Part shown: one piece after another, positions 34,067 to 48,262 of the stretch
How the letters are laid out: each line of letters begins with the position of its first letter
Position numbering within the stretch: position 1 is the first letter of the stretch
Assembly: GCF_040564635.1 (NCBI RefSeq)
Contig: NZ_CP159837.1
Span: 515,001-579,000 of the forward strand
Length of the DNA stretch: 64,000 nucleotides
Direction: 5' to 3'
From: Planktothricoides raciborskii GIHE-MW2
Lineage (GTDB): Bacteria; Cyanobacteriota; Cyanobacteriia; Cyanobacteriales; Laspinemataceae
Position numbers and translations under genes: made by a program
The notes under the pieces: generated by a model
Seen by the model: the letters and a program-made list of their open reading frames with translations, nothing else
The model's database searches: none
Told to the model about the DNA's origin: nothing

Positions 34067-35164
34067 ATGTTTGATGTCGCAGTGATTGGCGCGGGAATGG
34101 CGGGTTTAACCTGTGCCCAGCAGTTACAACAACTCGGATATCAGGTGGTGGTTCTAGAAAAATCTCGTGGGGTCGGTGGTCGAGTGGCGACTCGCCGATT
34201 ACCAGAGACTCGCGCCGATCATGGGGCGCGGTTTCTCAAGCCAAACACTGATTTATTACATCAATTGGTGATGGTGTTATCAAGTCATCACATTGTGCAG
34301 CCTTGGACCGATCGCTTGTACCAATTTAATCCCGACAATGGGGAATTGGTCGCCGATGCTAATTGGTGTCCTTATTATATCGCCCCAGAAGGGATGAATG
34401 CTGTGGGGAAATTTCTGGGGACGGGCTTGAATATTTGCTTCAGCGGACGAGTAGAAAAGATTTATCCCGATAGAAATAATCTCATCTGGCAAATTACCCT
34501 GGAAGCGACATCAGAGTTAGAGTCAACGGAAGTAGTTGCGCGAACTCTGGTGATGGCCATTCCTGCGCCCCAAGCTTTGACGCTTTTGGAACCAGAAGCC
34601 ACGGGAGTTTCTTCGGCAGTGCTTGACAAAGTGCGATCGGTGGAATTTGACCCTTGTATCGCGGTCATGGCTGGCTATCCCGCCGCCAGACAAAAAGATT
34701 TAGCCCAACAAAATCCGGTTTGGCGGGGTTTATTCTTTCCGCCAAATGACCCCCTCGCTTGGATCGCTTGGGATAGCAGCAAACGCAAGGGGGCAAAACA
34801 ACCTGTATTTGTCCTGCATAGTAGCGCCGAATTTGCCGAAAATTATTTAGAGGCGACGGATTTACAACCGGCAGGCGATCGAATTTTAGACCGGGCGGCG
34901 GAATGCACAATTCCCTGGTTAAATGCCCCGGAATGGGTGCAGATTCACCGTTGGCGTTATGCTTTTTGTCGCCGTCCTTTACCGGAAGAAATCTTAATTG
35001 CCGATAGTCCGTTACCGTTAGTTTGTGCCGGTGATTGGTGTGGGGGAAATCAAATCGAAGGGGCGTTACGTTCTGGTTTTGAAGCTGCCCGGTGGATCAA
35101 TGGACAATTGCAGGAACTTCCTCTGCCACCTTTGGCTAGTTTTTGGCATAGAATTGCCGGATAA
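34067..35164 (+). CDS. Renalase-like FAD-dependent amine oxidoreductase
   Basis: This flavoprotein has about 365 residues. The N-terminal dinucleotide-binding loop is VIGAGMAGLTCAQQL, followed by ESxxxxGGR-type VLEKSRGVGGRVATRR and a DHGARF motif. C-terminal VCAGDWCGGNQIEGALRSG binds the flavin, as in renalase/amine-oxidase proteins. The ATG at 34067 with AGGAA upstream is preferred; an in-frame TTG at 34028 lacks a ribosome-binding site. Substrate not known. In plants and cyanobacteria related genes are annotated as NAD(P)-binding or renalase-like proteins. Confidence 0.88.
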   Translation: MFDVAVIGAGMAGLTCAQQLQQLGYQVVVLEKSRGVGGRVATRRLPETRADHGARFLKPNTDLLHQLVMVLSSHHIVQPWTDRLYQFNPDNGELVADANWCPYYIAPEGMNAVGKFLGTGLNICFSGRVEKIYPDRNNLIWQITLEATSELESTEVVARTLVMAIPAPQALTLLEPEATGVSSAVLDKVRSVEFDPCIAVMAGYPAARQKDLAQQNPVWRGLFFPPNDPLAWIAWDSSKRKGAKQPVFVLHSSAEFAENYLEATDLQPAGDRILDRAAECTIPWLNAPEWVQIHRWRYAFCRRPLPEEILIADSPLPLVCAGDWCGGNQIEGALRSGFEAARWINGQLQELPLPPLASFWHRIAG

Positions 35165-35413
35165 TTGGCGCGATTCGGCTAAAAAGAGGAGGCTAATGAG
35201 AGAGGAGAGAGAAAAGAGGAAATTAGATATAAAGATAACCAAGAAACCCGATTTCTCTCCTCAAAAATTATATCCCTTTATTTCTGCTATCTAATTTCTC
35301 GGTGTTCTCTGTGTCTCTGTGGTAAATTTTATGAGAATGAAATAATAACTTGATTTTTTATTCAATACATGATAAACTATTGTTATAATAATCGGACAAG
35401 CACTCAAGAAAAT

Positions 35414-36199
35414 ATGTCTAGCATTAATACCGGAATTGAATGGACCGATCGCACCTGGAACCCCACCACGGGATGTACTAAAATTAGTCCAGGTTGCACC
35501 CATTGTTATGCGGAAGCCCTGACAAAAAGGTTTCATACAAATTTCCCTAATGGGTTTAATGTAACTCTCTATCCAGAGCGGTTAACCGAACCCTTAAAGT
35601 GGCGCAAACCTAGTCGAATATTTGTTAATTCTATGAGCGATTTGTTTCACGAAGATATTCCTCTATATTTTATTAAAGAGGTGTTTCAAGTCATAGAAAA
35701 AACACCTTGGCATATTTATCAAATCTTAACTAAAAGACATCAGCGCTTACTAGAACTAGCCCCAGAGTTAACCTGGCATGAAAATATCTGGATGGGAGTA
35801 TCTGTAGAGAATCAGAATTATGTGCAACGGGTGGATTATTTGCGACAAGTCCCGGCTAATGTGCGCTTTCTTTCCTGCGAACCACTCTTAGGGCCATTAG
35901 ATTTAGATTTAACGGATATTCATTGGGTGATTGTGGGGGGTGAGTCGGGCAATAAACACCGACCAATGGAATCAGAATGGGTGGAAAATATCCGCGATCG
36001 ATGTCAGGAAGCTGGGGTGGCATTTTTCTTTAAGCAGTGGGGCGGTAGAACTCCAAAAGCGAATGGCAGATTATTAGATGATAAAATTTGGGACGAAATG
36101 CCCGAAGCTTGGAAAAAACACCGTCAGCGTTGGAAAAACGTCCCGGTTAAATCTAGGCAAGTTGAGGGCAACAAATCCCTTACTTCGGTGGGAAGGTAA
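35414..36199 (+). CDS. DUF5131 (phage Gp37/Gp68-like) three-Cys-motif protein
   Basis: The 261-residue protein carries Cys21, Cys28 and Cys31 (CTKISPGCTHCYAE), a CX6CX2C pattern close to the iron-sulfur site of radical-SAM enzymes. It is followed by RIFVNSMSDLFHEDIP, WMGVSVENQ, RFLSCEPLLGP and IVGGESG, all typical of the phage Gp37/Gp68 family. ATG 35414 (MSSINTGIEWTD) is preferred to the upstream ATG 35369. Its 3' end overlaps the 3' end of tcmP by 20 bases on the opposite strand. The two families are known to occur together. The chemistry is unproven; a nucleic-acid-modifying role is plausible. Confidence 0.85.
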   Translation: MSSINTGIEWTDRTWNPTTGCTKISPGCTHCYAEALTKRFHTNFPNGFNVTLYPERLTEPLKWRKPSRIFVNSMSDLFHEDIPLYFIKEVFQVIEKTPWHIYQILTKRHQRLLELAPELTWHENIWMGVSVENQNYVQRVDYLRQVPANVRFLSCEPLLGPLDLDLTDIHWVIVGGESGNKHRPMESEWVENIRDRCQEAGVAFFFKQWGGRTPKANGRLLDDKIWDEMPEAWKKHRQRWKNVPVKSRQVEGNKSLTSVGR

Positions 36200-37304
36200 C
36201 TTTGACATCATCGGCAAATGTAGTCTGACCTTTATTTTTTCGGCGTTTACTAGCTGGTGGGTCTACAGTTATTTTACCTTGAGATTCTAATTTTTTTAGA
36301 GCTTCTTTATAATTTGTCTTGATGTAGCGTTTGCCAACATGATGTTGCTCATAAACTTCAAGCATGGTCATAGTTTTACCGGCAAATTTATCAAGCAACA
36401 TATCTTCCAATTCGTCAAGGGGTTTTGACAACTCAAAAAGTAAAGGGTGATATTGCGTAGCTGGATTATATTCAAAAGACGGAACACCTTGTTCGGTGCT
36501 AGAGCTTTCTTTTGCCATAATCTCTTTCATTATTTCGTAGCCACGGACGTGCTTAGATACAAATATTAGGTGATGGCTAGTTCTATTTCCCGTCTTGTTT
36601 TTGAAGCAAAATGGTAAAACGTATTGACCTCCTATTTTTTGCAAGGATTCCGACAGTTCTTCTACAACCATTAACTCCCGCTCTTGGGGTTTTTTGTCTT
36701 CTAGATATTGTCGAAGTGTATTTGCTTTTTCTTCACCAAATAGAGCGTTCATGTGTTCTTTAACAGCTTGATTATTCAAGCCCATATTAATTCGGTTATA
36801 GTTAAAGAAAAATATGCAATCGCAACCCCAATCTTTAATCACCGATCCAATTAATCCAAGTGATAAGCCTTTGTAACCCCAAGGATCGATGAAAAAAAGT
36901 GTGGGAACTAAGCGAATCTGTTGCAAGTTTTGAACAATTTCTTCTCCTACTTCTTTGTTTAATACTCTGGGTTTATGCGTTAAGGTATTGATGCCATCTA
37001 GTGAGGCGATCGCTTCCTGAAGAGATTGGGTGTTATTAGAATCAATATCATTAAAGATGGTGATAAGCATTTGTCGCATATCGGGTTCGACGATCGCCCG
37101 TTCCAAAATCCGTAATGGTGTAGACTGAGAACCATCTTTGTAGCGTCCCGGCCCAGAAAATAAATCAACGTATGCAATGTTGTTATTTCTTTTCTTTGCC
37201 GAAGGGATAATTACTTTTGCCCAAGCCCAAAAATATTTAGCCACAATTTCAGCTTTCACTAAAGACTGCTCTCTGGACTCGTTAAAAAAATCACTATTGC
37301 TCAT
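36180..37304 (-). CDS. tcmP: Three-Cys-motif partner protein TcmP
   Basis: The 374-residue protein has a methyltransferase-like Rossmann core: AYVDLFSGPGRYKDG near residue 45, FNDIDSN, and TLFFIDPWGYKGLS as a motif IV-like loop. IFFFNYNRINMGL follows. The C-terminal region (AGKTMTMLEVYEQHHVGKRY, NYKEALKKLESQGKI) looks like a winged helix ending in a Lys/Arg patch. This is the usual partner of DUF5131 three-Cys proteins. Convergent overlap with that gene and position between it and the Septu-like operon suggest a defence or mobile context. Confidence 0.85.
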   Translation of the reverse strand: MSNSDFFNESREQSLVKAEIVAKYFWAWAKVIIPSAKKRNNNIAYVDLFSGPGRYKDGSQSTPLRILERAIVEPDMRQMLITIFNDIDSNNTQSLQEAIASLDGINTLTHKPRVLNKEVGEEIVQNLQQIRLVPTLFFIDPWGYKGLSLGLIGSVIKDWGCDCIFFFNYNRINMGLNNQAVKEHMNALFGEEKANTLRQYLEDKKPQERELMVVEELSESLQKIGGQYVLPFCFKNKTGNRTSHHLIFVSKHVRGYEIMKEIMAKESSSTEQGVPSFEYNPATQYHPLLFELSKPLDELEDMLLDKFAGKTMTMLEVYEQHHVGKRYIKTNYKEALKKLESQGKITVDPPASKRRKNKGQTTFADDVKVTFPPK

Positions 37305-37440
37305 AATTGGGTTTAAACATTCAGATGAGAATAATTAGATTATAGCTGAATCAATTGGAAATCGGCAAGATTTTGCATCTTTTTCTACTCTCTTTGTGTT
37401 CTCTGTGCCTCTGTGGTGAAAAATTACACTCCGAAATGCC

Positions 37441-37508
37441 AAGAAACCGGGTTTCTTTTTTGCCTCCCACAGTTATCTGTGATTTCCCGAAAAGAAACCC
37501 GGTTTCTG
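37441..37508. repeat. Paired AAACCGGGTTTCTT palindrome
   Basis: AAGAAACCGGGTTTCTTTT at the left and AAAAGAAACCCGGTTTCT at the right form two nested palindromes with a 30-base spacer. Related paired copies occur at 47518-47586, 49012-49077 and, diverged, at 59468-59535. On the minus strand this copy follows the stop of the HNH gene upstream by position but lies between it and the tcmP promoter. Confidence 0.6.
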
Positions 37509-37570
37509 TATTTGGATGCTGACGGGGTTTTTCCTCTTCTTCAACCCATGCTTGTTTAAGATTTTATGCT

Positions 37571-39712
37571 TTAATCATCATCCAGCATGATGTCGTCATC
37601 ATCATCATCATATTTGCCATCATTCTCAATCAGTTCGGCAATTTCTTCCTCAGAGTCCAGCAGATTTTCATCATTATCACTGGTTCTATCCATCAATCGA
37701 CCGCTTCTTTCCAACCAATCTAAAATAGAAGTTTCATATTGTAAAGGAATCACATCAGCGATTTGATAACGCGGTGTTTGAGTCAGGGAAGGGTTGACTA
37801 CAGGTTTGTCTTTTCGGTCATTCTCTGTTTCTAGATATTGTGGTGATTGTTGCGGAATAGAATAAGTCTGTGTTGGTTGAGGTTGACGATTAACAGTTGC
37901 TTCAGGTTGTTCAGGTTCCGAATCGATCGCCTCAGTTTCCATAGAATCTTCTGGTTTAGTTTCCGAATCGATCGCCTCAGTTTCCGTTTCCGGTTCATCT
38001 GGGGATTCTGATTCTGCTGATTCTTCTGATAGAAAATCTTCTGATTCAGATTCCGAATCGATCGCCTCAGTTTCCGTTTCCGGTTCATCCGGGGATTCTG
38101 ATTCTGCTGATTCTTCTGATAGAAAATCTTCTGATTCTGGTTCCGAATCGATCGCCTCAGTTTCCGTTTCCGGTTCATCCGGGGATTCTGATTTTGCTGA
38201 TTCTTCTGATAGAAAATCTTCTGATTCTGGTTCCGAATCGATCGCCTCAGTTTCCGTTTCCGGTTCATCCGGGGATTCTGATTTTGCTGATTCTAAAGAA
38301 TCTTCTGATTCAGTTTCCGAATCGATCGCCTCAGTTTCCGCTTCCGGTTCATCCGGGGATTCTGATTCTACTGATTCTTCTGATAGAAAATCTTCTGATT
38401 CTGGTTCCGAATCGATCGCCTCAGTTTCAGTTTCCGGTTCATCCGGGGATTCTGATTCTGCTGATTCTTCTGATAGAAAATCTTCTGATTCAGATTCCGA
38501 ATCGATCGCCTCAGTTTCCGTTTCCGGTTCATCCGGGGATTCTGATTCTGCTGATTCTTCTGATAGAAAATCTTCTGATTCTGGTTCCGAATCGATCGCC
38601 TCAGTTTCCGTTTCCGGTTCATCCGGGGATTCTGATTCTGCTGATTCTTCTGATAGAAAATCTTCTGATTCTAGTTCCGAATCTTCTAAAGACAGTAATT
38701 CATCGCGATCGCCGATATAATCTTGACGATTTCCTGAAAAAGCATCGATTAATCGTGTGAATAGCGATCTGCTGTTTTCTTCCGATCTAAAATAATCATC
38801 CACGGGTAAAAATTCAGCATCAGGTTGTGGTGTTTCAGCCTCCGGTTCTGTTGAGGTTTCTTCCTCTTCTTCCAATAGAGATTCTGCCTCATCATCCCAT
38901 ATATCAGAATCGTAGGATGGTTGAGGTTCAACATTAGTGGAAGACTTGGGTCTACTAATAGTAGGCTTCGGTCTGCCATGTTCGTCAAAACACTCCTCTC
39001 TCGCAGTTCCGGGAAAAGCCTTCTCCTCCATAAAACGCTCTAACATATCCGGGTCGTCTTGAAATACTGTCATCCACACAGAAAAAAATCCTTTATCCTT
39101 TGCTTGAACAACAATATCTTGACGCATTTCTTCGTCATCTAATTTTTGCAAAAGTTTTAGAGACCGATGCGCCTTGTTCCAAGCTTCTGTGCGATGTTCA
39201 TATCTTTCATCTGCGGGTCTAGGTTCATCTGGACCGCCCGGATAGCGATTTAGACCAGTTAACTCCAAAGTTATTTGCGCTTTTTCTTTTTGAGACTGAC
39301 TAAGATTAGAATTAACCTCGATAATTACAACTTCTTCTCCATTTTTTTGTTGGTGAAATTGATAATCAAAAATCCATGCTGTATTATCGATATCAGGCCA
39401 ATAAACATCATCTAATTCTATGTCTTTATCTGATTTAGCATTATTGCAAGGACTACAGGCAAGCAGAAAGTTGTCCCAATCCCCTCTTAATGAATAATAC
39501 TTCTCCAAGCTTTTTGGTAACTTATGTTCTACATGAGAAGTAGAGATATCTAATTTGGTTTCGCAATAAGAACAATAAGGACCTAATCTACAAATCAGAT
39601 CTTTCTTTGCCTCTTTGTAAGTATTATCCTCTATTTTGCGATCGGATGTAAACACTTTAGAATCATTCGTCTTAGGATCTTTTGGCCAATCACCTTTATT
39701 AACTGGTCTCAT
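37571..39712 (-). CDS. PtuB-like HNH endonuclease with long acidic repeat tail
   Basis: Residues 40-100 form an HNH nuclease: CSYC (47-50), VEHKLPKS with catalytic-type His63, DWDNFLLACSPCNNAKSD (Asp80-Asn81, Cys86, Cys89, Asn90). This is the pattern of PtuB, the nuclease of Septu and of retron Ec78. Residues 100-260 are helical with LELTGLNRYPGG. Then a feature unusual for the family follows: residues about 341-592 consist of eight copies of a 30-residue acidic unit (SEDFLSEESAESESPDEPE..). The protein ends in a run of Asp. Its ATG overlaps the stop of the ATPase gene upstream (ATGA), so the two are translationally coupled. Total 713 residues, over twice the usual size. Confidence 0.85.
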   Translation of the reverse strand: MRPVNKGDWPKDPKTNDSKVFTSDRKIEDNTYKEAKKDLICRLGPYCSYCETKLDISTSHVEHKLPKSLEKYYSLRGDWDNFLLACSPCNNAKSDKDIELDDVYWPDIDNTAWIFDYQFHQQKNGEEVVIIEVNSNLSQSQKEKAQITLELTGLNRYPGGPDEPRPADERYEHRTEAWNKAHRSLKLLQKLDDEEMRQDIVVQAKDKGFFSVWMTVFQDDPDMLERFMEEKAFPGTAREECFDEHGRPKPTISRPKSSTNVEPQPSYDSDIWDDEAESLLEEEEETSTEPEAETPQPDAEFLPVDDYFRSEENSRSLFTRLIDAFSGNRQDYIGDRDELLSLEDSELESEDFLSEESAESESPDEPETETEAIDSEPESEDFLSEESAESESPDEPETETEAIDSESESEDFLSEESAESESPDEPETETEAIDSEPESEDFLSEESVESESPDEPEAETEAIDSETESEDSLESAKSESPDEPETETEAIDSEPESEDFLSEESAKSESPDEPETETEAIDSEPESEDFLSEESAESESPDEPETETEAIDSESESEDFLSEESAESESPDEPETETEAIDSETKPEDSMETEAIDSEPEQPEATVNRQPQPTQTYSIPQQSPQYLETENDRKDKPVVNPSLTQTPRYQIADVIPLQYETSILDWLERSGRLMDRTSDNDENLLDSEEEIAELIENDGKYDDDDDDIMLDDD
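37935..38690 (-). repeat. 90-bp in-frame tandem repeats in the HNH gene
   Basis: Eight units of about 90 bp encode the 30-residue acidic repeat. One unit is shortened (the SLESAKSE copy), and most units contain the word GAATCGATCGCC. Silent and missense differences separate copies, with two identical classes (EPES and ESES variants) alternating. Because the unit is a multiple of three, copy-number change would keep the frame open. Confidence 0.9.
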
Positions 39713-41037
39713 TTGGCTACCTCCTGACCAGATAGGGCTGCTCTCCGGTTCATTCTGAGAAAAGCATGATAAGCAGCATCGTCACTGTATCGCATTTTTA
39801 ATTGCGTTTCTAATTCATTTAGTTGATCTTCAATTTCTCTTAGATATCCTGAGTCAAATGTTTTAGCATTTTTCGCATCTTCTATTAACCGCAAGTATTT
39901 TTCAGCATCTGCTTTCATCCGTAAAAATCGCTGACCCTTATGTGGTACGTCTATACCCATCACCAGATCCGCAATATCCTCAATACTTCTGTTATAATAA
40001 AGAGGATTTTTTTCATTATCCAAGTTAATCAGGTCTCCTAACCGGAGAGACTGGATAATAAATGGTGAATGAGTAGTGGCGATAAACTGAATATTTGGGA
40101 AGGTACGATGTAATGCTTCCACCACACCGCGCTGCCAACTAGGATGCAGGTGTAAATCAATTTCATCAATTAATACAATGCCCGGTGTTTCTTTAGCCGC
40201 ATCCTTGCCTAAGTGAGGATTCAACATGGCCGCCCGATAAGCCATATCCGCAACCATTGCTAACATATTCCGCACCCCATCACTGAGAAGTCGTAGTGGC
40301 AGGAAACGCCCATCTGTTGCCTCAGCCAATACTTCACTTTTCACCGAATCATAAGTAATGGTCTGCCAGTCTTCATCTTCCATACACTTGGCAACAGCAC
40401 TGGTCACGACTTCTAAAGCATCACTCCGCGTTGATTTTAAGGCTTTTTCTTCTTCCTTTCTCAGCCAATCAATTAACCAGGTTATATTTGAGTCAGGATG
40501 GAAACAATTTTCATAGCCTTTAGTTCGGGATTCTTTTACGGAATTATTCTCATCTTGATTTTCCTTTGTTTGATTTTGGTTGGGAATCCAGAGACGATCT
40601 GTTCCATAATAAACGATGAGAGGTAAAAGGCTATTTTGACCATTAGAGATCATTTTATTGAGATTTTGAGATAAAGTCTTTATGGTTTTATCTGTCCTAG
40701 GCTTATTCCCTGTATCAGCCAAAGATTGCGTCCAGGTAATTTCTTGTTCTGCAAAAATTCCTTCACAGCTTACTGAAGCCGGATATTGAGGCTGAATGTC
40801 AATGTTTCTACCTTTTTTATATGATTTGAGACGCACGTCGCGATCTTTTAAGGAACGCAACGAATCTGGTTCACTAACCTCTGATAGTAAACCACTAATC
40901 CCAACAGCGATCGCATCCAGAATCGCTGTCTTCCCTTTACCGTTAGCCCCAATAATTAAAGTATAGGGGGCTGAAAGTTCAAACTCCTCGTTTTCAAAGC
41001 ATTTAAAGTTCTCAAGTATGATTCGGTTAATTTTCAT
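39709..41037 (-). CDS. PtuA-like AAA ATPase (copy A, adjacent to HNH gene)
   Basis: This is an SMC/RecF-type ATPase of 442 residues: INRIILENFKCFENEEF, Walker A GANGKGKT (30-37), the ABC signature-like LSDGVRN near 251, Walker B IVLIDEIDLHLHPSW (Asp291, Glu292), and switch His323 in ATTHSPF. This is the overlapping-gene ATPase paired with the HNH nuclease, the Septu arrangement. The start is ATG 41035-41037 (MKINRI), served by GGAG; an upstream TTG adds four residues. The protein is nearly identical to copy B in its N-terminal 330 residues and differs at the C-terminus. It ends EVAK with TGA inside the HNH start. Confidence 0.87.
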   Translation of the reverse strand: MKINRIILENFKCFENEEFELSAPYTLIIGANGKGKTAILDAIAVGISGLLSEVSEPDSLRSLKDRDVRLKSYKKGRNIDIQPQYPASVSCEGIFAEQEITWTQSLADTGNKPRTDKTIKTLSQNLNKMISNGQNSLLPLIVYYGTDRLWIPNQNQTKENQDENNSVKESRTKGYENCFHPDSNITWLIDWLRKEEEKALKSTRSDALEVVTSAVAKCMEDEDWQTITYDSVKSEVLAEATDGRFLPLRLLSDGVRNMLAMVADMAYRAAMLNPHLGKDAAKETPGIVLIDEIDLHLHPSWQRGVVEALHRTFPNIQFIATTHSPFIIQSLRLGDLINLDNEKNPLYYNRSIEDIADLVMGIDVPHKGQRFLRMKADAEKYLRLIEDAKNAKTFDSGYLREIEDQLNELETQLKMRYSDDAAYHAFLRMNRRAALSGQEVAK

Positions 41038-41092
41038 AGTTTTCTCCAATCCTTAAACAAGGCTAAATTTGACCTTTGATGACTGCTAGAGA

Positions 41093-41300
41093 CTATAATG
41101 ATTTCAGGTTGACAATTTGCTGGCGTTCTATTTCCTCGCTAATCAGCGATGATTGGGTTGTCCCAATAAATTGTATCATGGGAAATATCTGCCGAAGCTT
41201 GTTCATTATATTTTTTTCCAATTCTGAATCTAGATGCAATTCTAAGTCATCAATTAATACCACTTCAGGGGTTTGCTCGATCGCTTGTTTACCTAACAGG
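41093..41300 (-). pseudogene. 3' fragment of a second copy of ATPase C
   Basis: In the gap between ATPase B and ATPase A, the minus strand encodes GKQAIEQTPEVVLIDDLELH, then LDSELEKNIMNKLRQIFPMI, QFIGTTQSSLIS and QQIVNLKSL with TAG at 41093-41095. It matches the last 65 or so residues of ATPase C (42603-43574), with a few substitutions and an insertion of about 6 bases. The 5' part is missing. It joins directly to four codons of a lost HNH gene at 41292-41306. Confidence 0.9.
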
Positions 41301-41306
41301 TTTCAT
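41292..41306 (-). pseudogene. First codons of a deleted second HNH gene
   Basis: Overlapping the TGA of ATPase B is an ATG that reads ATG AAA CCT GTT, i.e. MKPV, matching the start of the intact HNH protein (MRPV). The ATGA overlap is the same as between ATPase A and the intact HNH gene. After these codons the sequence switches to the ATPase C' fragment. Confidence 0.75.
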
Positions 41307-42547
41307 TTTGTAGCCTCCGTATCAAAACCGTCTACGAGTTTTTTCCGTTGAAGAAATGCTTCATAAGCAGGATTGTCGCTATATGGAATATATTCCTCCG
41401 CAGTAGCCTTCATTTTTGGATCGCGATCGCTTTGTTGCGGTACTTCAATACCCATCACATTTTTAACAATATCTGTAATGGATTGATTGTCATACTTATC
41501 ATAATCGATTGTTTCTTGAGCATCTAAACTAATTAATTTTCCTAATTCACGACGGAGAGACTGGATAATAAATGGTGAATGAGTAGTAGCGATAAACTGA
41601 ATATTTGGGAAGGTACGATGTAATGCTTCCACCACACCGCGCTGCCAACTAGGATGCAGGTGTAAATCAATTTCATCAATTAATACAATGCCCGGTGTTT
41701 CTTTAGCCGCATTCTTGCCTAAGTGAGGATTCAACATGGCCGCCCGATAAGCCATATCCGCAACCATTGCGAACATATTCCGCACCCCATCACTCAGGAG
41801 TCGCAGGGGCAGTAAACGCCCATCTTTTGCCTCAGCCAAAACCTCATTTTTCATCGAATCATAAGTAATCGTCTGCCAGTCTTCATCTTCCATACAGTCA
41901 GCAAGAGCACTGGTCACGACTTCTAGTGCATCACTCCGCGCTGATTTTAAGGCTTTTTCTTCTTTCTTTCTCAGCCAATCAGTTAACCAGGTTATATTTA
42001 AGTCAGTATCGAAACAATTCTCATAGCCTTTAGTTCGGGATTCTTTTACGGAATTATTCTCATCTTGATTTTCCTTTGTTTGATTTTGGTTGGGAATCCA
42101 GAGACGATCTGTTCCATAATAAATGATGAGAGGTAAAAGGTCAGTTTGACCATTAAACGCGATTTCCTTCAGCTTTTTAGATAAATCTTCTATTGTCTTA
42201 TCTATCTTAACCTTAAGATTGCTGCGGACTAAAGATTGCGTCCAGGTAATTTCTTGTTCTGCAAAAATTCCTTCACAGCTTACTGAAGCCGGATATTGAG
42301 GCTGAATGTCAATGTTTCTACCTTTTTTATATGATGCGAGACGCACGTCATTATCTTTTAAGAAAAGCAAAGAACCTGATTCACTAACCTCTGATAGTAA
42401 AGCACTAATCCCAACAGCGATCGCATCCAAAATCGCTGTCTTCCCTTTACCATTATTCCCAATAATTAAAGTATAAGGCGATGAGAGTTCAAACTCCTCG
42501 TTTTCAAAGCATCTAAAGTTCTCAAGTATGATTCGGTTAATTTTCAT
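41303..42547 (-). CDS. PtuA-like AAA ATPase (copy B)
   Basis: This is a paralogue of copy A, 414 residues from ATG 42545-42547 (MKINRI; GGAG upstream). It has the same motifs: Walker A GNNGKGKT, LSDGVRNMFAM, Walker B IVLIDEIDLHLH and ATTHSPF. The C-terminal 90 residues differ (RELGKLISLDAQETIDYD, VPQQSDRDPKMKATAEEY) and may determine its partner. It ends DTEATK with TGA overlapping the remnant of a second HNH gene, so it once had its own nuclease. Its start is 1,510 bases from that of copy A. If still made, it could compete with or join copy A in the complex. Confidence 0.87.
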   Translation of the reverse strand: MKINRIILENFRCFENEEFELSSPYTLIIGNNGKGKTAILDAIAVGISALLSEVSESGSLLFLKDNDVRLASYKKGRNIDIQPQYPASVSCEGIFAEQEITWTQSLVRSNLKVKIDKTIEDLSKKLKEIAFNGQTDLLPLIIYYGTDRLWIPNQNQTKENQDENNSVKESRTKGYENCFDTDLNITWLTDWLRKKEEKALKSARSDALEVVTSALADCMEDEDWQTITYDSMKNEVLAEAKDGRLLPLRLLSDGVRNMFAMVADMAYRAAMLNPHLGKNAAKETPGIVLIDEIDLHLHPSWQRGVVEALHRTFPNIQFIATTHSPFIIQSLRRELGKLISLDAQETIDYDKYDNQSITDIVKNVMGIEVPQQSDRDPKMKATAEEYIPYSDNPAYEAFLQRKKLVDGFDTEATK

Positions 42548-42602
42548 AGTTTTCTCCAATCCTTAAACAAGGCTAAATTTGACCTTTGATGACTGCTAGA
42601 GA

Positions 42603-43574
42603 CTATAATGATTTAAGGTTGACAATTTGCTGGGGTTCTATGGTAATCAGCGGTGATTGGGTTGTCCCAATAAATTGTATCATGGGAAATATCTGCCGAA
42701 GCTTGTTCATTATATTTTTTTCCAATTCTGAATCTAGATGCAATTCTAAGTCATCGATTAATACCACTCCAGGGGTTTGTTTGGTTGCTTGTTCGTATAA
42801 CTGAGGATTTAGGACAGCGCAGCGATAAGCAATATCCGCGACCATTCCTAATAAATTATATAAATTGCGATTTTGCTTATCCAAATCACAAAAATTTATT
42901 TCTTGATTTTCTAGTTTTAAAAGTAATTCCTCTTGCCGTAGATCGTAAACAACATCTTTTATATTTTCCGAACAGTCGGCGATCGCTTCTTTCACTGCCA
43001 TAAAGACCTCCCAGGGTTGTCCCTCTTGTCTGGCTATTAATTCCATGATTTTGAACCATTCCCAGAGTTGTTTATAATTTTTTGTCGGATTAAACCAATT
43101 CAAATTACCTAAAATAACTGACTTTGGCTTATTCGCTTCAATAGCTTTCAATTTTTTGCTCGGCCATCGCTTTGCACTATAATAAGCAACTATTGGTAGA
43201 ATAATATCTTCTCCCTTGCGAATTCCTTGCTGAAGTTGCTGGGCAATTTTTTCTATTTCTTTAGCATGAACCGAAGTAGTTCTGCCGTTTTCCTTTTCTA
43301 TAGTTCGCTTCCAACTAATTCCTTGTCCATTCACTATCCCTTGACATGAAATTACTACCGGACACTTCCGCACATCTTCTTTATGAATATTACGATATGG
43401 AATATCGCTAAACCCTAAAAACAGGGAACCAGCAGCGATCGCCAATGCTTCCATTAGGCTAGTTTTGCCACTGCCTTTATTTCCCACAATTAAACAGGGG
43501 TCAGTTAAATCGCAGGTAAAATGATCGAATCCTCGGAAATTCTGAATTTCAATTCGCTGAATTTTCATGGTCAT
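42603..43574 (-). CDS. PtuA-related ATPase C with altered catalytic residues
   Basis: This 323-residue member of the same SMC-like group is the first gene of the operon. It begins MTMKIQRIEIQNFRGFDHF. Walker A GNKGSGKTS (31-39) is intact. Walker B reads VVLIDDLELHLD, so the catalytic Glu is Asp275, and the switch motif is GTTQSPL, with Gln306 in place of His. The same two changes are in the fragment C' at 41093-41300. It stops soon after this motif, without the C-terminal extension of A and B. It probably binds ATP but hydrolyses poorly. It is separated by about 55 bases from the next ATPase. Confidence 0.85.
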   Translation of the reverse strand: MTMKIQRIEIQNFRGFDHFTCDLTDPCLIVGNKGSGKTSLMEALAIAAGSLFLGFSDIPYRNIHKEDVRKCPVVISCQGIVNGQGISWKRTIEKENGRTTSVHAKEIEKIAQQLQQGIRKGEDIILPIVAYYSAKRWPSKKLKAIEANKPKSVILGNLNWFNPTKNYKQLWEWFKIMELIARQEGQPWEVFMAVKEAIADCSENIKDVVYDLRQEELLLKLENQEINFCDLDKQNRNLYNLLGMVADIAYRCAVLNPQLYEQATKQTPGVVLIDDLELHLDSELEKNIMNKLRQIFPMIQFIGTTQSPLITIEPQQIVNLKSL

Positions 43575-43619
43575 TCACTGTTTATGAATAATTGGATTAT
43601 AGCCCATTATATCTTGTAG

Positions 43620-43684
43620 GGGCAAAGCATTCGCGCCCAAACCTATCGGTTAAGCGTTAGGACTAATCCGCGAATGCTTTGCCC
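43620..43684. terminator. Long perfect inverted repeat between oxoprolinase and the ATPase operon
   Basis: GGGCAAAGCATTCGCG (43620-43635) pairs exactly with CGCGAATGCTTTGCCC (43669-43684). It lies 15 bases downstream of the oxoprolinase stop on the minus strand and 45 bases upstream of the first ATPase start. It could end one unit and separate it from the promoter of the other. Confidence 0.55.
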
Positions 43685-43698
43685 AATGTTCTCAATGT

Positions 43699-46600
43699 TT
43701 ATGATTCCTCAATCAAATCATGGCCATAGCCACCGCCCCCAGGAGTTTCAATAATAAACATATCTCCCGGATACATTTCTACTGCCCCGGTACTGTCTAA
43801 TTGTTCCACAGTTCCATCGCGACGTTGGACATAATTTTTACCCAAAGCCCCGTCACTGCCACCATTTAACCCAAAGGGAGAAATAAGCCGATGATTCGAT
43901 AAAATACCGGCGGTCATTTGTTCTTGGAAACGCAGGCAACGAATCACCCCATTGCCCCCGCGATATTGTCCTTTACCGCCACTATTTTCCCGAATGGCAA
44001 AACTTTCTAATATGACGGGAAAACGCCATTCTAAAACTTCTGGATCGGTTAACCGAGAGTTGGTCATGTGCGTATGCACTGCATCAGTTCCATTGAAGGT
44101 TTGCCCAGCCCCAGAACCGCCACAAATGGTTTCATAATATTGATATTTTTTATTACCAAAAGTGAAGTTATTCATGGTTCCTTGGGATGCGGCCATCACT
44201 CCTAATGCCCCATATAAAGCATCCACGATCGCCTGGGATGTCTCGACATTTCCGGCAACTACCGCAGCGGGATATTGGGGGTTTAGCATACAGCCTTCGG
44301 GAATGATAATTTCTAATGGTTTCATGCAACCAGCATTGAGGGGTATATTGTCATCAACTAGGGTACGAAATACATAGAGAACCGCCGCTTTACATACCGC
44401 AGCCGGGGCGTTAAAATTGCTATTTTGTTGGGGAGATGTGCCGGTAAAGTCGATTTTGGCGCTGCGGGTGGTTTTGTCTAAAGTGACTTTTACCTGGATG
44501 GTTCCTCCTGCATCCATAAGATAGGTAAATTCCCCATCTTTGAGAACGTTAATCACTCGGCGAACCGATTCTTCGGCATTGTTCTGCACATATCCCATAT
44601 AGGCTTGGACGGTTTCTAAGCCGAAATGGTTGACCATGTTTTCTATTTCTTGAATCCCCCGTTTGTTGGCGGCAATTTGCGCTTGCAAGTCGGCGATATT
44701 TTGGGCTGGGTTGCGGGCAGGATAGGGGCTGGAGTTGAGTTTTTCCAGTAGTTCGTTTTCTTGGAATTTACCGCGAGAAACTAACTGGAAATTGTCAAAT
44801 AATATGCCTTCTTGTTCTACGGAGGTACTGTTAGGAGGCATGGAACCGGGAGTAATTCCGCCAATGTCTGCATGGTGTCCACGAGAGGCAAGGTAGAAGA
44901 TGGGCGCACCGGATGGGGCAGCGGATTTTTGGGATGATTCGGTTAGAAATACAGGGGTGATGACGGTGATGTCAGGTAAATGGGTGCCGCCATTGTAGGG
45001 GTTATTGGAAATATAAACATCCCCCGGTTGTAGGGTGTTGTTTTTGTCTTTGATTAGGGCTTGAACGCTTTCACTCATTGACCCAAGATGGACGGGAATA
45101 TGAGGGGCGTTGGCTACTAATTGTCCGTTTTGATCGAATATGGCACAAGAAAAGTCGAGGCGTTCTTTGATGTTGACGGAGGAGGCGGTGTTTTGCAAGG
45201 TGATGCCCATTTGTTCCGCGATCGCCCGAAATAAGTTGTTGAAAATTTCCAACATTACCGGGTCTGGTTTGGCGGTGATATGGGTTGTTTTTGGGGAAAC
45301 GGGAGAGGAGGAAATTGCTGTTTGTTTGGTGAGAATTAAATGATTTTTCTCGGTGATTTTGGCCTGCCAATTGGGCGCGATCGCATTCGTTCCCGTTGCT
45401 TCAATAATAATCCCAGGGCCGGTAATTATATCTCCCGGTTGTAAATTATCCCGCTGAAAAACGGGAGTTTCTTGCCAGCGATCGCCTACATACATTTGTA
45501 CCGTGGCAATGGGTGAGGGAGGTTCGGGACTGTGACGATAAATTATGGGGTCTTCGGGACTATCCATAATTTGCACCACTTCCACAGAAACAGCCTCAAC
45601 AATTAGGGCTTTTTCTGGTTGAATAAAGCCATAACGTTGCTGGTGCGCGGCTGCAAATTCGGCTTGCATAGTGGCCACATTTTCGGTAAAATCTACAATC
45701 AAGGATGAATCCGTTCCCTGATATTTTAGCTGGACTTTGGGGAAAACTTGGCAATCTTGATTTTCTGTTAAATCACTGATATCGTTATTGGCGATTTCTT
45801 GTTTACCTTTTGCAGCTAATTCAGTGAATATTTGCTGCAATTTTGATAATAATTCTGGGGATAATGGGGCTTCAATTGCCCGTTGCTGAATCACGCGAAC
45901 ATCCGCTAATCCCATGCCGAAAGCCGATAAAACTCCAGCATAAGGATGGATAAATACTTGTTTCATGCCTAAAGTTTCGGCAATTTGGCAAGCGTGTTGT
46001 CCCCCGGCGCCGCCAAAACAACAGAGGGTATATTCAGAAACGTCATAACCCCGTTGTAAGGATATTTTTTTGATGGCATTGGCCATATTTTCCACCGCGA
46101 TCGCTAAAAATCCGGCGGCTACTTGTTCCGGGGTGGAATTGCTACCAGTTTTCGCGTTAATTTCTGTAGTTAATTGATGAAATTTTTGCCGGACAATTTC
46201 CCCATCTAAAGGTAAATCACCATTTTTGCCAAATACTTTAGGGAAAAATTGCGGCTGAATTTTGCCTAACATGACATTACAATCGGTGACAGTTAATGGC
46301 CCATTTTGGCGATAACAAGCAGGTCCAGGATTTGCCCCGGCTGACTCTGGCCCAACCCGATATCGTGACCCATCAAAAAATAAAATTGAACCCCCACCGG
46401 CAGCGACGGTATTAATTGACATCATGGGAGTTCGGAGGCGAACCCCAGCAATTTCTGTTTCAAATTCTCGTTCGTATTCGCCGTTATAATGGGCTACGTC
46501 TGTGGATGTTCCCCCCATGTCAAAGGTGATAATTTTATCAAAACCGGCCATTTTACTGGTTTGAACTGCCCCAACAATGCCCCCCGCAGGCCCAGATAAT

Positions 46601-47409
46601 ATGCTATCTTTGCCTTGAAATTTTTGGGCATCTGTTAACCCACCATTTGATTGCATAAACATTAATGTTGGGGCGGAATGTTTCGATTGGTTGTCGGAAA
46701 GTTGTCCGGCAACGCGATCGACATAGCGGCGTAAAATAGGAGAAAGATAGGCATCGACTACGGTAGTATCTCCCCGGCTAACTAATTTCATTAAGGGGCT
46801 AACTTGGTGGGAAACGGAAATTTGATTAAAGCCAATTTTGCGGGCAATTTCGGCAATTTGCTGTTCGTGTTTCGGATAGCGATAGCCATGCATTAATGCG
46901 ATCGCGCAAGAACGAATGCCGCTGTGATATGCTTGCTGCAATTGGGCAATTAATGGCGCTTCATTTACGGGTTGCAATTCTTCCCCGTGGGCATTGTAGC
47001 GTTCGGCGACTTCGATCGCTTGTTCATAAAGCATTTCTGGCAGAACAATTTCCCGCGCAAAAATATCCGGGCGATTTTGATAACCAATTCGCAAGGCATC
47101 TCGAAATCCTTTAGTAATGACTAAAACCGTGCGATCGCCTTTCCGTTCTAATAGGGCATTTGTTGCCACGGTAGTGCCCATTTTTACTGCGGAAATCAAT
47201 TCCCCAGGGATGGGTTCATCTGTGGGAATGCCCAAAATTTCTCGAATTCCCTGACAAGGGGCGTCACTATAGCGATCGGGATTTTCCGATAACACTTTAT
47301 GAATCACTAATTGTCCGTCGGGACGTTTGGCAACAATATCGGTAAATGTGCCGCCGCGATCGATCCAGAATTCCCAGGGATTTTGATTGGTAGAAATATT
47401 ACTCATCAT
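43699..47409 (-). CDS. 5-oxoprolinase (fused hydantoinase A/B type, ATP-dependent)
   Basis: This enzyme opens 5-oxoproline to glutamate with ATP, in glutathione and pyroglutamate recycling. It has 1,236 residues, close to eukaryotic-type and bacterial fused oxoprolinases. Residues 1-700 are the HyuA half ([62 protein letters not shown]). Residues 720-1236 are the HyuB half ([40 protein letters not shown], ending TPGGGGYG). No break or missing motif is seen. The 5' 120 bases are repeated at 48375-48497. It stands alone in its unit. Confidence 0.93.
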
Positions 47410-47517
47410 TTTTTGTCCTTAGAGAGAATATGTCAAAAATACTAGCAAATTTTACAAATAATGGTAGTCACGGGTTTAAACTCATGGCTACCAGAACGAT
47501 CCAGAAAATAAAACCAA

Positions 47518-47586
47518 AAACCGGATTTCTGAATTAAACCTCTGTTTTGATCCAGGCATTGATGGCAAAAACCCGGTTTCTTTTCA
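47518..47586. repeat. Paired AAACCGG..TTTCT repeat near hepT
   Basis: AAAAACCGGATTTCT and AAAACCCGGTTTCTTTTCAGG enclose a spacer of about 35 bases. It belongs to the same family as 37441-37508 and 49012-49077, the latter also followed by CAGGG and a GATCG-rich stretch. It lies between the oxoprolinase start and the end of hepT. Confidence 0.55.
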
Positions 47587-47625
47587 GGGACGATTCCGCT
47601 TCGATCGGATCGCTGCGCGAATCGC

Positions 47626-47979
47626 TTACTCAATAACTCCTTCCTGCTGCAATATTGCTTCTAATTGCGGAATCAAAGGAGGTAAATAATTTTGGATGGT
47701 ATGCCAAACAATATCTAGTTCAACTTGGAAGTATTCATGTGCAATCACGTTACGCATATCCCCCATTAAGCGCCAGGGAATCTGAGAATAGTAGGTCTTG
47801 AGTTCGGTGTCAATATTGATAGCCGCTTCACCAATGATCATGAAGTCATAGAGACAAGCATTGGCAATGGTATCATTAGCTTCAAATTCGGAAAAGTTTA
47901 CCTCTGCTGTGCGCTTTTCTATTCGCTTAATTGCAGCTAAAATATCACGAATTCTATCGATGGATTCTCTAGAAGGCAC
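47626..47979 (-). CDS. hepT: HepT-like HEPN toxin
   Basis: The 117-residue HEPN-domain protein (DUF86) carries the RX4HXY motif as RNVIAHEY (Arg76, His81, Tyr83), the RNase active site. In this family the Tyr is AMPylated by the partner MntA. DFMIIGEAAINI and IPWRLMGDMRN are typical flanks. It overlaps mntA by 11 bases at its start. The pair is a type VII toxin-antitoxin module, common in cyanobacteria, and may be linked to stress or phage response. Confidence 0.9.
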   Translation of the reverse strand: MPSRESIDRIRDILAAIKRIEKRTAEVNFSEFEANDTIANACLYDFMIIGEAAINIDTELKTYYSQIPWRLMGDMRNVIAHEYFQVELDIVWHTIQNYLPPLIPQLEAILQQEGVIE

Positions 47980-48262
47980 AAATCGCCTCCTTTAAAACGC
48001 GATCGCGCAAGTATGGCTTCAGCGAGTCTGGACTTCCCATATCCACCGAACAACCTAAAACATCTTCTAAATACAAACGGACTCGACTCACGTCAAACAA
48101 TCCAATGGGGCGATCGTCAAATTCCACTAAAAAATCCACATCACTATCCGGTTTTGCTTCATCTCTAGCCACGGAACCAAATAAGGCTAAAGATTTAACT
48201 CCCATTGCCTGTAATTCGCCTTGATGTTTGGCAACGATCGCCAATACTTCGTCTCGCTTCAT
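47969..48262 (-). CDS. mntA: MntA-like nucleotidyltransferase antitoxin
   Basis: This 97-residue minimal nucleotidyltransferase has GS(30)VARDEAKPDSD(41)VD(43)FLVEF, the GSX10DXD motif with both metal-binding aspartates intact. It would transfer AMP to the HepT tyrosine and block its RNase. It starts at ATG 48260-48262 and overlaps hepT. The pair lies between the true oxoprolinase start and a duplicated copy of it. Confidence 0.9.
   Translation of the reverse strand: MKRDEVLAIVAKHQGELQAMGVKSLALFGSVARDEAKPDSDVDFLVEFDDRPIGLFDVSRVRLYLEDVLGCSVDMGSPDSLKPYLRDRVLKEAICAF

What the first reader, a model, noticed from the sequence alone, without database searches (positions are those of the whole stretch)
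37571..43574. Septu-like operon with three ATPases and one HNH nuclease, arisen by collapse of a duplicated cassette
Seen: minus-strand order is ATPase C, ATPase B, fragment C', ATPase A, HNH gene. A and B start 1,510 bases apart and are nearly identical over 330 residues, C' matches the 3' end of C, and an HNH start remnant follows B. Known: PtuA (ATPase) plus PtuB (HNH) form Septu, and both also act in retron Ec78. Inferred: the ancestral unit was C-ATPase-HNH, once present twice. A three-component version with an extra ATPase-like protein at the front is not the standard Septu layout and could be a distinct subtype.
Basis: partly seen in the sequence, partly recalled or inferred. Interest (0 to 1): 0.85.

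Follow-up and report, generated by a model that had tools for sequence, protein, structure and literature searches.

The report
Septu variant with dead ATPase subunit
A cyanobacterial anti-phage gene cluster of the Septu kind carries an extra, apparently dead copy of its ATPase and a nuclease that seems to have captured, twice over in evolution, a small protein that almost every cyanobacterium has, which points to a new way of wiring this defence to its host.

Summary
The layout is real. On the minus strand lie C (323 aa), B, a C' remnant, A and an HNH gene; A and B are PtuA (PADLOC E 7e-135, 1.9e-126) and the HNH gene is PtuB (8.5e-70). The proposed unit C-PtuA-PtuB exists singly, at the same chromosomal site, in two genomes of another genus, so the window's arrangement is a collapsed tandem. 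C is not a third working ATPase: it is a PtuA paralogue that keeps Walker A, has lost the signature serine and H-loop histidine in 4 of 4 alleles and the Walker B glutamate in 3 of 4, and stops before the C-terminal tail. It folds like PtuA (Z 35.6) and is under purifying selection (omega 0.47). The fused copies are not one clade (AU p 0.00025): each resembles its own genus's resident copy. Best reading: a three-component Septu variant in which C is a hydrolysis-dead partner of PtuA and DUF3134 tethers or baits PtuB. Biochemistry and phage defence are untested; known range is one family.

The parts
42603..43574 (-). C: degenerate PtuA paralogue, 323 aa; Walker A kept, signature/H-loop lost, C-terminal tail missing
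   Evidence: PDLC00278 PtuA1 E 8.5e-82 over profile 1-342 of 436; motifs; model pLDDT 82.8, Z 35.6 to E. coli PtuA 8eea_B
41303..42547 (-). B: PtuA copy of the first cassette (its PtuB is lost); mechanical ORF starts at TTG 42559
   Evidence: PDLC00278 E 1.9e-126; intact motifs
41289..41306 (-). Remnant of a PtuB start (MKPVR*), overlapping the stop of B
41093..41290 (-). C': remnant of the 3' end of a second C gene
39709..41037 (-). A: PtuA of the second cassette; mechanical ORF starts at TTG 41049
   Evidence: PDLC00278 E 7e-135; 8ee4_A PtuA E 4.5e-51
37571..39712 (-). PtuB-DUF3134: HNH nuclease with acidic repeat linker and DUF3134 tail, 713 aa; starts at the stop of A (ATGA overlap)
   Evidence: PDLC00315 PtuB E 8.5e-70 over 1-251; PF01844 and PF11332
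38948..39712 (-). HNH part of PtuB (residues 1-255)
37945..38683 (-). 90-bp (30 aa) acidic tandem repeat, 8.3 copies; linker residues 256-635 have net charge -138
37592..37795 (-). DUF3134 domain at the C-terminus of PtuB
   Evidence: PF11332 E 5.2e-23; G000:C1:552592-552795

Best explanation
This is a three-component variant of the Septu anti-phage system: C, PtuA and a PtuB nuclease fused to DUF3134. Shown by sequence: C is a PtuA paralogue with a PtuA-like predicted fold, a P-loop but no signature serine, no H-loop histidine, usually no catalytic glutamate, and no C-terminal tail; the motifs of PtuA are intact and the HNH part of PtuB is a full match; PtuB ends in a DUF3134 protein. Inferred: C co-assembles with PtuA into mixed oligomers. 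A C-PtuA head dimer cannot hydrolyse ATP normally, because neither composite site has both a working Walker B/H-loop side and a working signature side; C would hold ATP without turnover and, lacking the tail, would not recruit PtuB. C would thus fix in a separate gene the asymmetry recalled for E. coli PtuAB, where six identical PtuA carry two PtuB, and would set the threshold at which the nuclease is released. DUF3134, taken from the host's resident gene, would tether PtuB to the partner of that core protein or act as bait for phage proteins that attack it. In Planktothricoides a tandem of two units collapsed to C-B-[PtuB remnant/C']-A-PtuB, leaving two PtuA alleles and one PtuB.
For: PADLOC matches of all four proteins and of C, PtuA and PtuB of relatives. 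Single C-PtuA-PtuB units at the same site in G395 and G397. C is one clade of its own (100/99), PtuA of these loci another (100/100); a joint clade is not rejected, p 0.39. Motifs: in 48 non-C rows signature S 48 of 48, H-loop H 46 of 46 covered, Walker B E 46 of 47 covered (the exception, L124, is a broken frame); in C, S and H lost in 4 of 4 distinct alleles, E to D in 3 of 4, Walker A lysine kept in 4 of 4; tail after the H-loop 15-18 aa in C against 89-117 in 42 of 48 non-C rows. Purifying selection: omega 0.47 (0.32-0.72) and 0.47 (0.33-0.67), 0 of 400 bootstraps with dN >= dS in each. The C model aligns to PtuA 1-376, Z 35.6, rmsd 2.0 over 314. Chain lengths printed by Foldseek suggest that the tail is ordered when PtuB is bound: 8eea A/B 375/372 but C/D 445/456; 9e91 without PtuB 390, 9e90 with PtuB 483/481; 9n6c without the HNH nuclease 425-447, 9n69 with it 427-525. 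DUF3134: fused in the window, G395 and G397 and, inferred across a contig gap, in SR001; resident in 144 of 145 genomes of the class; fused copies not one clade.
Against: No interaction, ATPase, nuclease or phage assay exists, and no complex could be modelled here. C evolves faster than PtuA (omega 0.47 against 0.19), as a slowly decaying gene might. Tail loss is not unique to C: six of 48 other rows have only 0-54 residues after the H-loop; one runs off its contig (L067) and one is a broken frame (L124), and the remaining four (L054, L118, L123, L125) keep their motifs but show no PtuB ORF nearby, so a short tail can also mean decay. In G388 C is intact although PtuA is cut at 84 aa and no PtuB was found. 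The unit is known from 5 genomes (a sixth, G399, ends 107 bases into the site) of one family. The PtuB-docking role of the tail rests on resolved chain lengths, not on an interface, and lengths in other entries vary. The DUF3134 model is poor (pLDDT 57.7), so its role is open. The HNH parts do not resolve as one clade, though that is not rejected (p 0.27). The PtuA tree came with warnings of meeting long branches.
Confidence: 0.53

Rival explanations
1. Ordinary two-gene Septu type I beside a dying PtuA duplicate. C is a truncated, inactive leftover with no role; only PtuA and PtuB matter.
For: C has lost its motifs and tail; omega of C is about 2.5 times that of PtuA; C persists in G388 without a working PtuA; four other PtuA frames with short tails have no PtuB ORF nearby.
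Against: C is an open frame in 4 of 4 distinct alleles across two genera, with near-saturated synonymous divergence between them (NG86 dS about 2.1); omega is below 1 in both close pairs with 0 of 400 bootstraps at or above 1; the alleles end 15-18 residues after the H-loop column; the model is confident.
Confidence: 0.24
2. C is the brake (antitoxin-like inhibitor): it caps PtuA, keeps PtuAB silent and is removed or rearranged on infection, as the RT-msDNA does for PtuAB in retron Eco7.
For: PtuAB of retron Eco7 is toxic alone and neutralised by msDNA plus RT (PMC11555353, passages); none of the scanned neighbours is an RT and no Rfam RNA reached its threshold here; C is the first gene of the unit.
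Against: Stand-alone two-gene Septu is not known to need a brake protein (recalled); 20 other cyanobacterial PtuA-PtuB loci have no second PtuA ORF in the stretch held.
Confidence: 0.25
3. The DUF3134 tail is an electrostatic or stability tail (acidic, nucleic-acid mimic, autoinhibitory) with no link to the resident DUF3134.
For: The tail carries net charge -17 to -18 in the window, G395 and G397, and the window linker -138; the repeat is absent from G395 and G397 and expanded in Planktothricoides.
Against: A 228-nt stretch, about the whole resident frame and no flank, is shared with the resident gene in both lineages; 12 columns are invariant over 10 DUF3134 rows, two of them fused; fused-resident dN/dS is about 0.05 and 0.09; a plain acidic tail would not need the host's own copy twice.
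Confidence: 0.25
4. The fusion happened once and the tail was later overwritten by gene conversion from the resident copy in one or both genera.
For: Same place of fusion in both lineages; C and PtuA of these loci are each one clade and HNH monophyly is not rejected (p 0.27).
Against: Conversion of a 228-nt tract between distant loci, without its flanks, would be needed. DUF3134 does duplicate readily: 15 of 145 genomes have two matches, which suits either account.
Confidence: 0.4

Closest known systems
Septu type I (PtuA + PtuB), E. coli structures 8ee4/8eea/8sux
   Same: PtuA ATPase followed by PtuB HNH nuclease; A matches 8ee4_A over residues 5-418; C folds like it
   Different: A third gene, C, in front; PtuB fused to DUF3134; in the window a second PtuA
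Septu type II / type I-A retron (Ec78/Eco7, Ec83)
   Same: PtuA and PtuB effectors; a third component in front of them (PMC8565338, passages)
   Different: There the third component is a reverse transcriptase with msDNA ('PtuC'); none was found here and NCBIfam's Ec78 PtuA/PtuB cut-offs are not reached
PARIS AriA
   Same: ABC-type defence ATPase of related fold (Z about 18)
   Different: AriB is a TOPRIM nuclease (recalled); A and B match PtuA models far better, and AriA is not among the 25 best listed for C
PADLOC candidate PDC-M30 (TcmP + DUF5131)
   Same: Lies next door; similar genes use the same hotspot in relatives
   Different: Separate genes, convergent to each other; not part of the unit

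Membership tests
Septu (PtuA-PtuB) | PtuA-family ABC/RecF-like ATPase with intact Walker A/B, signature and H-loop | tested here: met
   A and B: PDLC00278 E 7e-135, 1.9e-126; motifs intact
Septu (PtuA-PtuB) | PtuB-family HNH nuclease encoded directly after PtuA | tested here: met
   PDLC00315 E 8.5e-70 over 1-251; ATGA overlap with the stop of A
Septu (PtuA-PtuB) | Anti-phage activity needing both PtuA Walker motifs and PtuB HNH | not testable with these tools
   Shown for E. coli Septu EcB88 (PMC13096335, passages); no assay here
Septu type I (strict two-gene layout) | Only ptuA and ptuB | tested here: not met
   C precedes PtuA in the window, SR001, G395, G397
Septu type I (strict two-gene layout) | PtuB of about 200-260 aa without extra domain | tested here: not met
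   DUF3134 tail, 713/326/324 aa; of 33 genomes with a PtuB match among 388, 4 have frames over 340 aa; the next longest, 303 and 276, are weak matches under 60 bits, not examined
Septu type II / retron I-A | Reverse transcriptase gene in front of ptuA, with msr-msd RNA | tested here: not met
   Upstream gene is a hydantoinase/oxoprolinase; no Rfam match at gathering score in 35000-48000; none of the six proteins scanned at the locus matches an RT
PtuA (for C) | Common descent and fold with PtuA | tested here: met
   PDLC00278 E 8.5e-82; Z 35.6; tree
PtuA (for C) | Catalytic motifs and C-terminal tail | tested here: not met
   Signature, H-loop and mostly Walker B lost, Walker A kept; tail 15-18 aa

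The most novel reading that the evidence does not exclude
An immune complex wired to its host in two new ways. First, the asymmetry of the PtuA oligomer is genetic: C is a dedicated ATP-holding, non-hydrolysing, non-recruiting PtuA-like subunit. Second, PtuB carries an integrated bait: a copy of DUF3134, a near-universal cyanobacterial protein encoded just upstream of mraY, captured independently in two genera from their own resident gene, so that phage attack on that protein or its cell-wall partner arms or directs the nuclease, in the manner of plant receptors with integrated decoys.
Probability: 0.25. Interest if true: 0.87.

Novelty: new variant of a known kind. Interest (0 to 1): 0.63.

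Why it matters
If right, Septu has a three-protein form in which a dead ATPase paralogue regulates or shapes the nuclease complex, which would make the unsolved trigger of Septu testable with a subunit that can be removed. The repeated capture of DUF3134 gives a functional lead for a protein family that nearly all genomes of the class carry (144 of 145) and for which the held library returned no paper, and suggests that bacterial nucleases can acquire host-protein baits.

Tried and rejected
C as a working third ATPase: rejected on motifs. C as a non-Septu protein: rejected on PADLOC and fold. Assembly artefact for the tandem: rejected, SR001 has the same junction. Simple duplication of one cassette: not excluded, but C' is no closer to the window's C than to that of G388. 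One fusion with plain vertical descent of the tail: rejected by the AU test; gene conversion remains possible.

Led nowhere: DUF3134 in phages (no match), in viral contigs (81 stretches, none confirmed) and in the PDB (one match at E 1.5); DUF3134 fold (pLDDT 57.7, no fold search made); the C of G395 in plasmids (3 records, about 27% identity); Rfam. PtuA relatives in viral contigs (59 loci) served only as alignment depth for the model of C (12 of them used). Literature: 'Septu' with 'pseudo-ATPase' 0 papers; 'DUF3134' 0 papers; 'Planktothricoides' with 'defense system' 4 listed, none opened; 'integrated decoy' with other terms, 6 listed of 6,580, all on plant immunity or plant pathogens, listing only. 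The E. coli PtuAB structure paper (PMC12318543) is not held; its content is recalled, with a one-line summary seen in PMC12198126.

Rows dropped: of the PtuA-like ORFs, three under 250 aa before the alignment and eight of 54 (fragments, duplicates, near-duplicates) before the tree of 46; two short L083 frames before the PtuB tree. The whole-library searches scored only a few candidates per genome (5).
Full report
What is there. On the minus strand the window holds C (42603-43574), B (41303-42547), a remnant, A (39709-41037) and an HNH gene (37571-39712). A and B lie 1,510 bases apart; 294 of the first 340 residues are identical, then 32 of 73. Overlapping the stop of B are six codons that read MKPVR*, in the position where A has the HNH start MRPV, and then comes a remnant C' of the C 3' end. 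Planktothricoides sp. SR001 (L001; by its coordinates the same contig as G414:C60) has the same order; C differs from the window by 1 of 972 bases, B by 0 of 1245 and the stretch with both remnants by 0 of 254. The tandem is therefore real and older than the split of these two strains.

Families. All three ATPase-like proteins match the PADLOC model PDLC00278 (PtuA1) best: A 7e-135, B 1.9e-126, C 8.5e-82. The HNH protein matches PDLC00315 (PtuB1), 8.5e-70 over residues 1-251. NCBIfam's models for the Ec78 retron PtuA and PtuB match below their cut-offs, as expected for a stand-alone Septu. In the PDB, A matches E. coli PtuA 8ee4_A (4.5e-51).

The unit elsewhere. In G395 and G397, two genomes of another genus of the same family, a single unit C-PtuA-PtuB lies directly downstream of a homologue of the window's hydantoinase/oxoprolinase gene. 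C there is 327 aa, 48-49% identical to the window's C. PtuB there is 326 and 324 aa and also ends in DUF3134 (8.5e-26 and 9.9e-25), without the acidic repeats. G388, of the window's genus, has an intact C (71%), then a PtuA cut at 84 aa, a DnaJ-domain ORF and TcmP. A profile of C over 388 genomes of the order found C-type proteins in five (G000, G414, G388, G395, G397; four of these are rows of the profile) at 585.9 bits or more, and the next match at 331.3 bits. Twenty other cyanobacterial PtuA-PtuB loci that I fetched show no second PtuA-like ORF within the stretch held, and their PtuB frames are 205-253 aa (in L119 the contig ends inside PtuA and in L083 the PtuB frame is split).

The site. 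After the hydantoinase gene the family shows a defence hotspot (12 genomes without the window and SR001): C units in G395, G397 and, broken, G388; 61 bases like the start of one in G399 before its contig ends; DNA like the window's TcmP gene in G396, G398 and G389 (69-75%); a DUF5131-like ORF in G394, by eye; in G393 sequence that lies downstream of the unit in G395 begins 234 bases after the hydantoinase stop, so this is an empty site; G392, G390 and G391 match none of the queries.

What C is. The tree of 46 PtuA-like proteins puts the C proteins in one clade (100/99) and the PtuA of the same loci in another (100/100); holding both together is not rejected (p-AU 0.39), which fits an old tandem duplication but does not show it; the program warned of meeting long branches. 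C keeps the P-loop lysine in 4 of 4 distinct alleles. It has lost the signature serine and the H-loop histidine in 4 of 4 and the Walker B glutamate in 3 of 4 (G397 keeps it). Among 48 other rows the serine is kept in 48 of 48, the histidine in 46 of 46 that cover it and the glutamate in 46 of 47, the exception being a broken frame. C ends 15-18 residues after the H-loop, where 42 of 48 other rows run on for 89-117; the other six have 0-54, and the four of these that are neither cut by a contig end nor broken (L054, L118, L123, L125) have no PtuB ORF nearby, so a short tail may also go with decay. C is nevertheless kept: dN/dS is 0.47 in both close pairs, with 0 of 400 bootstraps at or above 1, though PtuA has 0.19. 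The AlphaFold2 model of C (pLDDT 82.8, pTM 0.87, 18 sequences) matches E. coli PtuA best, Z 35.6, rmsd 2.0 over 314 residues, PtuA residues 1-376.

How C may work. In ABC-type head dimers each ATP site is made of Walker A/B and H-loop from one subunit and the signature from the other (established knowledge). In a C-PtuA dimer one site would have the hydrolytic side of C, which lacks histidine and mostly glutamate, and the other would face the broken signature of C. Such a dimer should bind but not turn over ATP. Li et al. 2024 (recalled; one-line summary seen in PMC12198126) describe six PtuA with two PtuB, an asymmetric trimer of dimers, inhibited by ATP. The chain lengths that Foldseek prints suggest that the PtuA tail becomes ordered with PtuB: in 8eea two chains have 372-375 and two 445-456 residues; Ec83 PtuA without PtuB (9e91) has 390 and with PtuB (9e90) 481-483; a retron I-A complex without the nuclease (9n6c) has 425-447 and with it (9n69) 427, 448, 512 and 525. 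Other entries vary. C stops about where the short 8eea chains stop. So C looks like a dedicated non-recruiting protomer. This is inference; an inhibitory role is a close rival.

The DUF3134 tail. DUF3134 was found in 144 of 145 genomes drawn from the class; 15 of them have two matches, and apart from the window's fusion the frames listed have at most 222 residues (a few matches were cut from the list). Among 14 control genomes only Synechococcus elongatus has it. In 14 of 15 genomes looked at, the resident gene lies within about 0.5 kb upstream of, and on the same strand as, an mraY-like gene, confirmed as MraY by TIGR00445 in the two tested (1.5e-88, 4.6e-102). In the tree of 25 DUF3134 rows (75 columns) the Planktothricoides residents and fused tails form one clade (100/100) and the G395-genus residents and fused tails another (99/97); keeping the four fused tails together costs 44.2 log-likelihood units, p-AU 0.00025. 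The window's tail is 88% identical to its own resident copy and the G395 tail 76-79% to residents of its own genus, while the residents of the two genera share 61% and the two fused tails about 50%. The homology covers 228 nt, about the resident frame, and no flank in both lineages; dN between fused and resident is 0.064 and 0.168 against 0.362 between residents of the two genera. So each lineage took, or re-copied, its own DUF3134. Synonymous sites are near saturation, so the capture is not recent. In SR001 the fusion is inferred: its PtuB frame runs off one contig inside the repeats, and another contig begins inside such repeats and ends in DUF3134. A tether or bait role is the simplest reason for taking the host's own copy; it is not shown.

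Known systems. PADLOC's authors divide Septu into type I (PtuAB) and type II with a reverse transcriptase, PtuC (PMC8565338, passages). E. coli Septu EcB88 needs the Walker motifs and HNH residues (PMC13096335, passages) and cleaves the variable loop of tRNA-Tyr (its abstract as listed); the Eco7 retron PtuAB also depletes tRNA-Tyr, while the ATCC25922 system is reported to target nicked DNA (PMC11555353, passages). None of the passages read mentions a PtuA paralogue as third component or a DUF3134 fusion; the searches were made, in an open-access library only.

Verdict. The novelty lies in two things that sequence reading alone missed: C is a conserved dead ATPase, and PtuB has a captured host protein at its end. 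A new variant of a known kind; function untested.

Noticed in passing
window 35369-36199 (+) and 36180-37304 (-): Convergent DUF5131 (radical SAM pair protein-like, below the TIGR04471 cut-off) and TcmP genes, matching the PADLOC candidate system PDC-M30A/B; similar genes occupy the same hotspot in G389, G394, G396 and G398.
   Followed up: partly
window 39000-40900 against L001: Within one species C, B and the flank are nearly identical, but A (93%) and above all the HNH part of PtuB (78% aa, dS 0.21) differ strongly: a local allele replacement or diversification centred on the nuclease.
   Followed up: partly
G000:C1:5186197-5186403 (L009): Resident DUF3134 sits upstream of mraY in 14 of 15 genomes and near another conserved gene, without NCBIfam match in the one tested, in 12 of 15: a lead towards a cell-wall role.
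   Followed up: partly
G000:C1 about 5207092-5208303 (L085): A further PtuA-like ORF of another subfamily (PDLC00271, 2.8e-121) elsewhere in the genome; no ORF like this PtuB matched within the stretch held, neighbours not examined otherwise.
   Followed up: no
window 28494-30110 (-): A 538-aa ORF joins a short-chain dehydrogenase domain to a phytanoyl-CoA dioxygenase-like domain (PF00106, PF05721).
   Followed up: no
window 23794-25557 (+): Protein kinase domain followed by seven WG repeats (PF00069, PF14903).
   Followed up: no
L002 7355-7957: In G388 the PtuA gene is cut after 84 codons and followed by a DnaJ-domain ORF without PADLOC match: perhaps another hotspot cargo.
   Followed up: no
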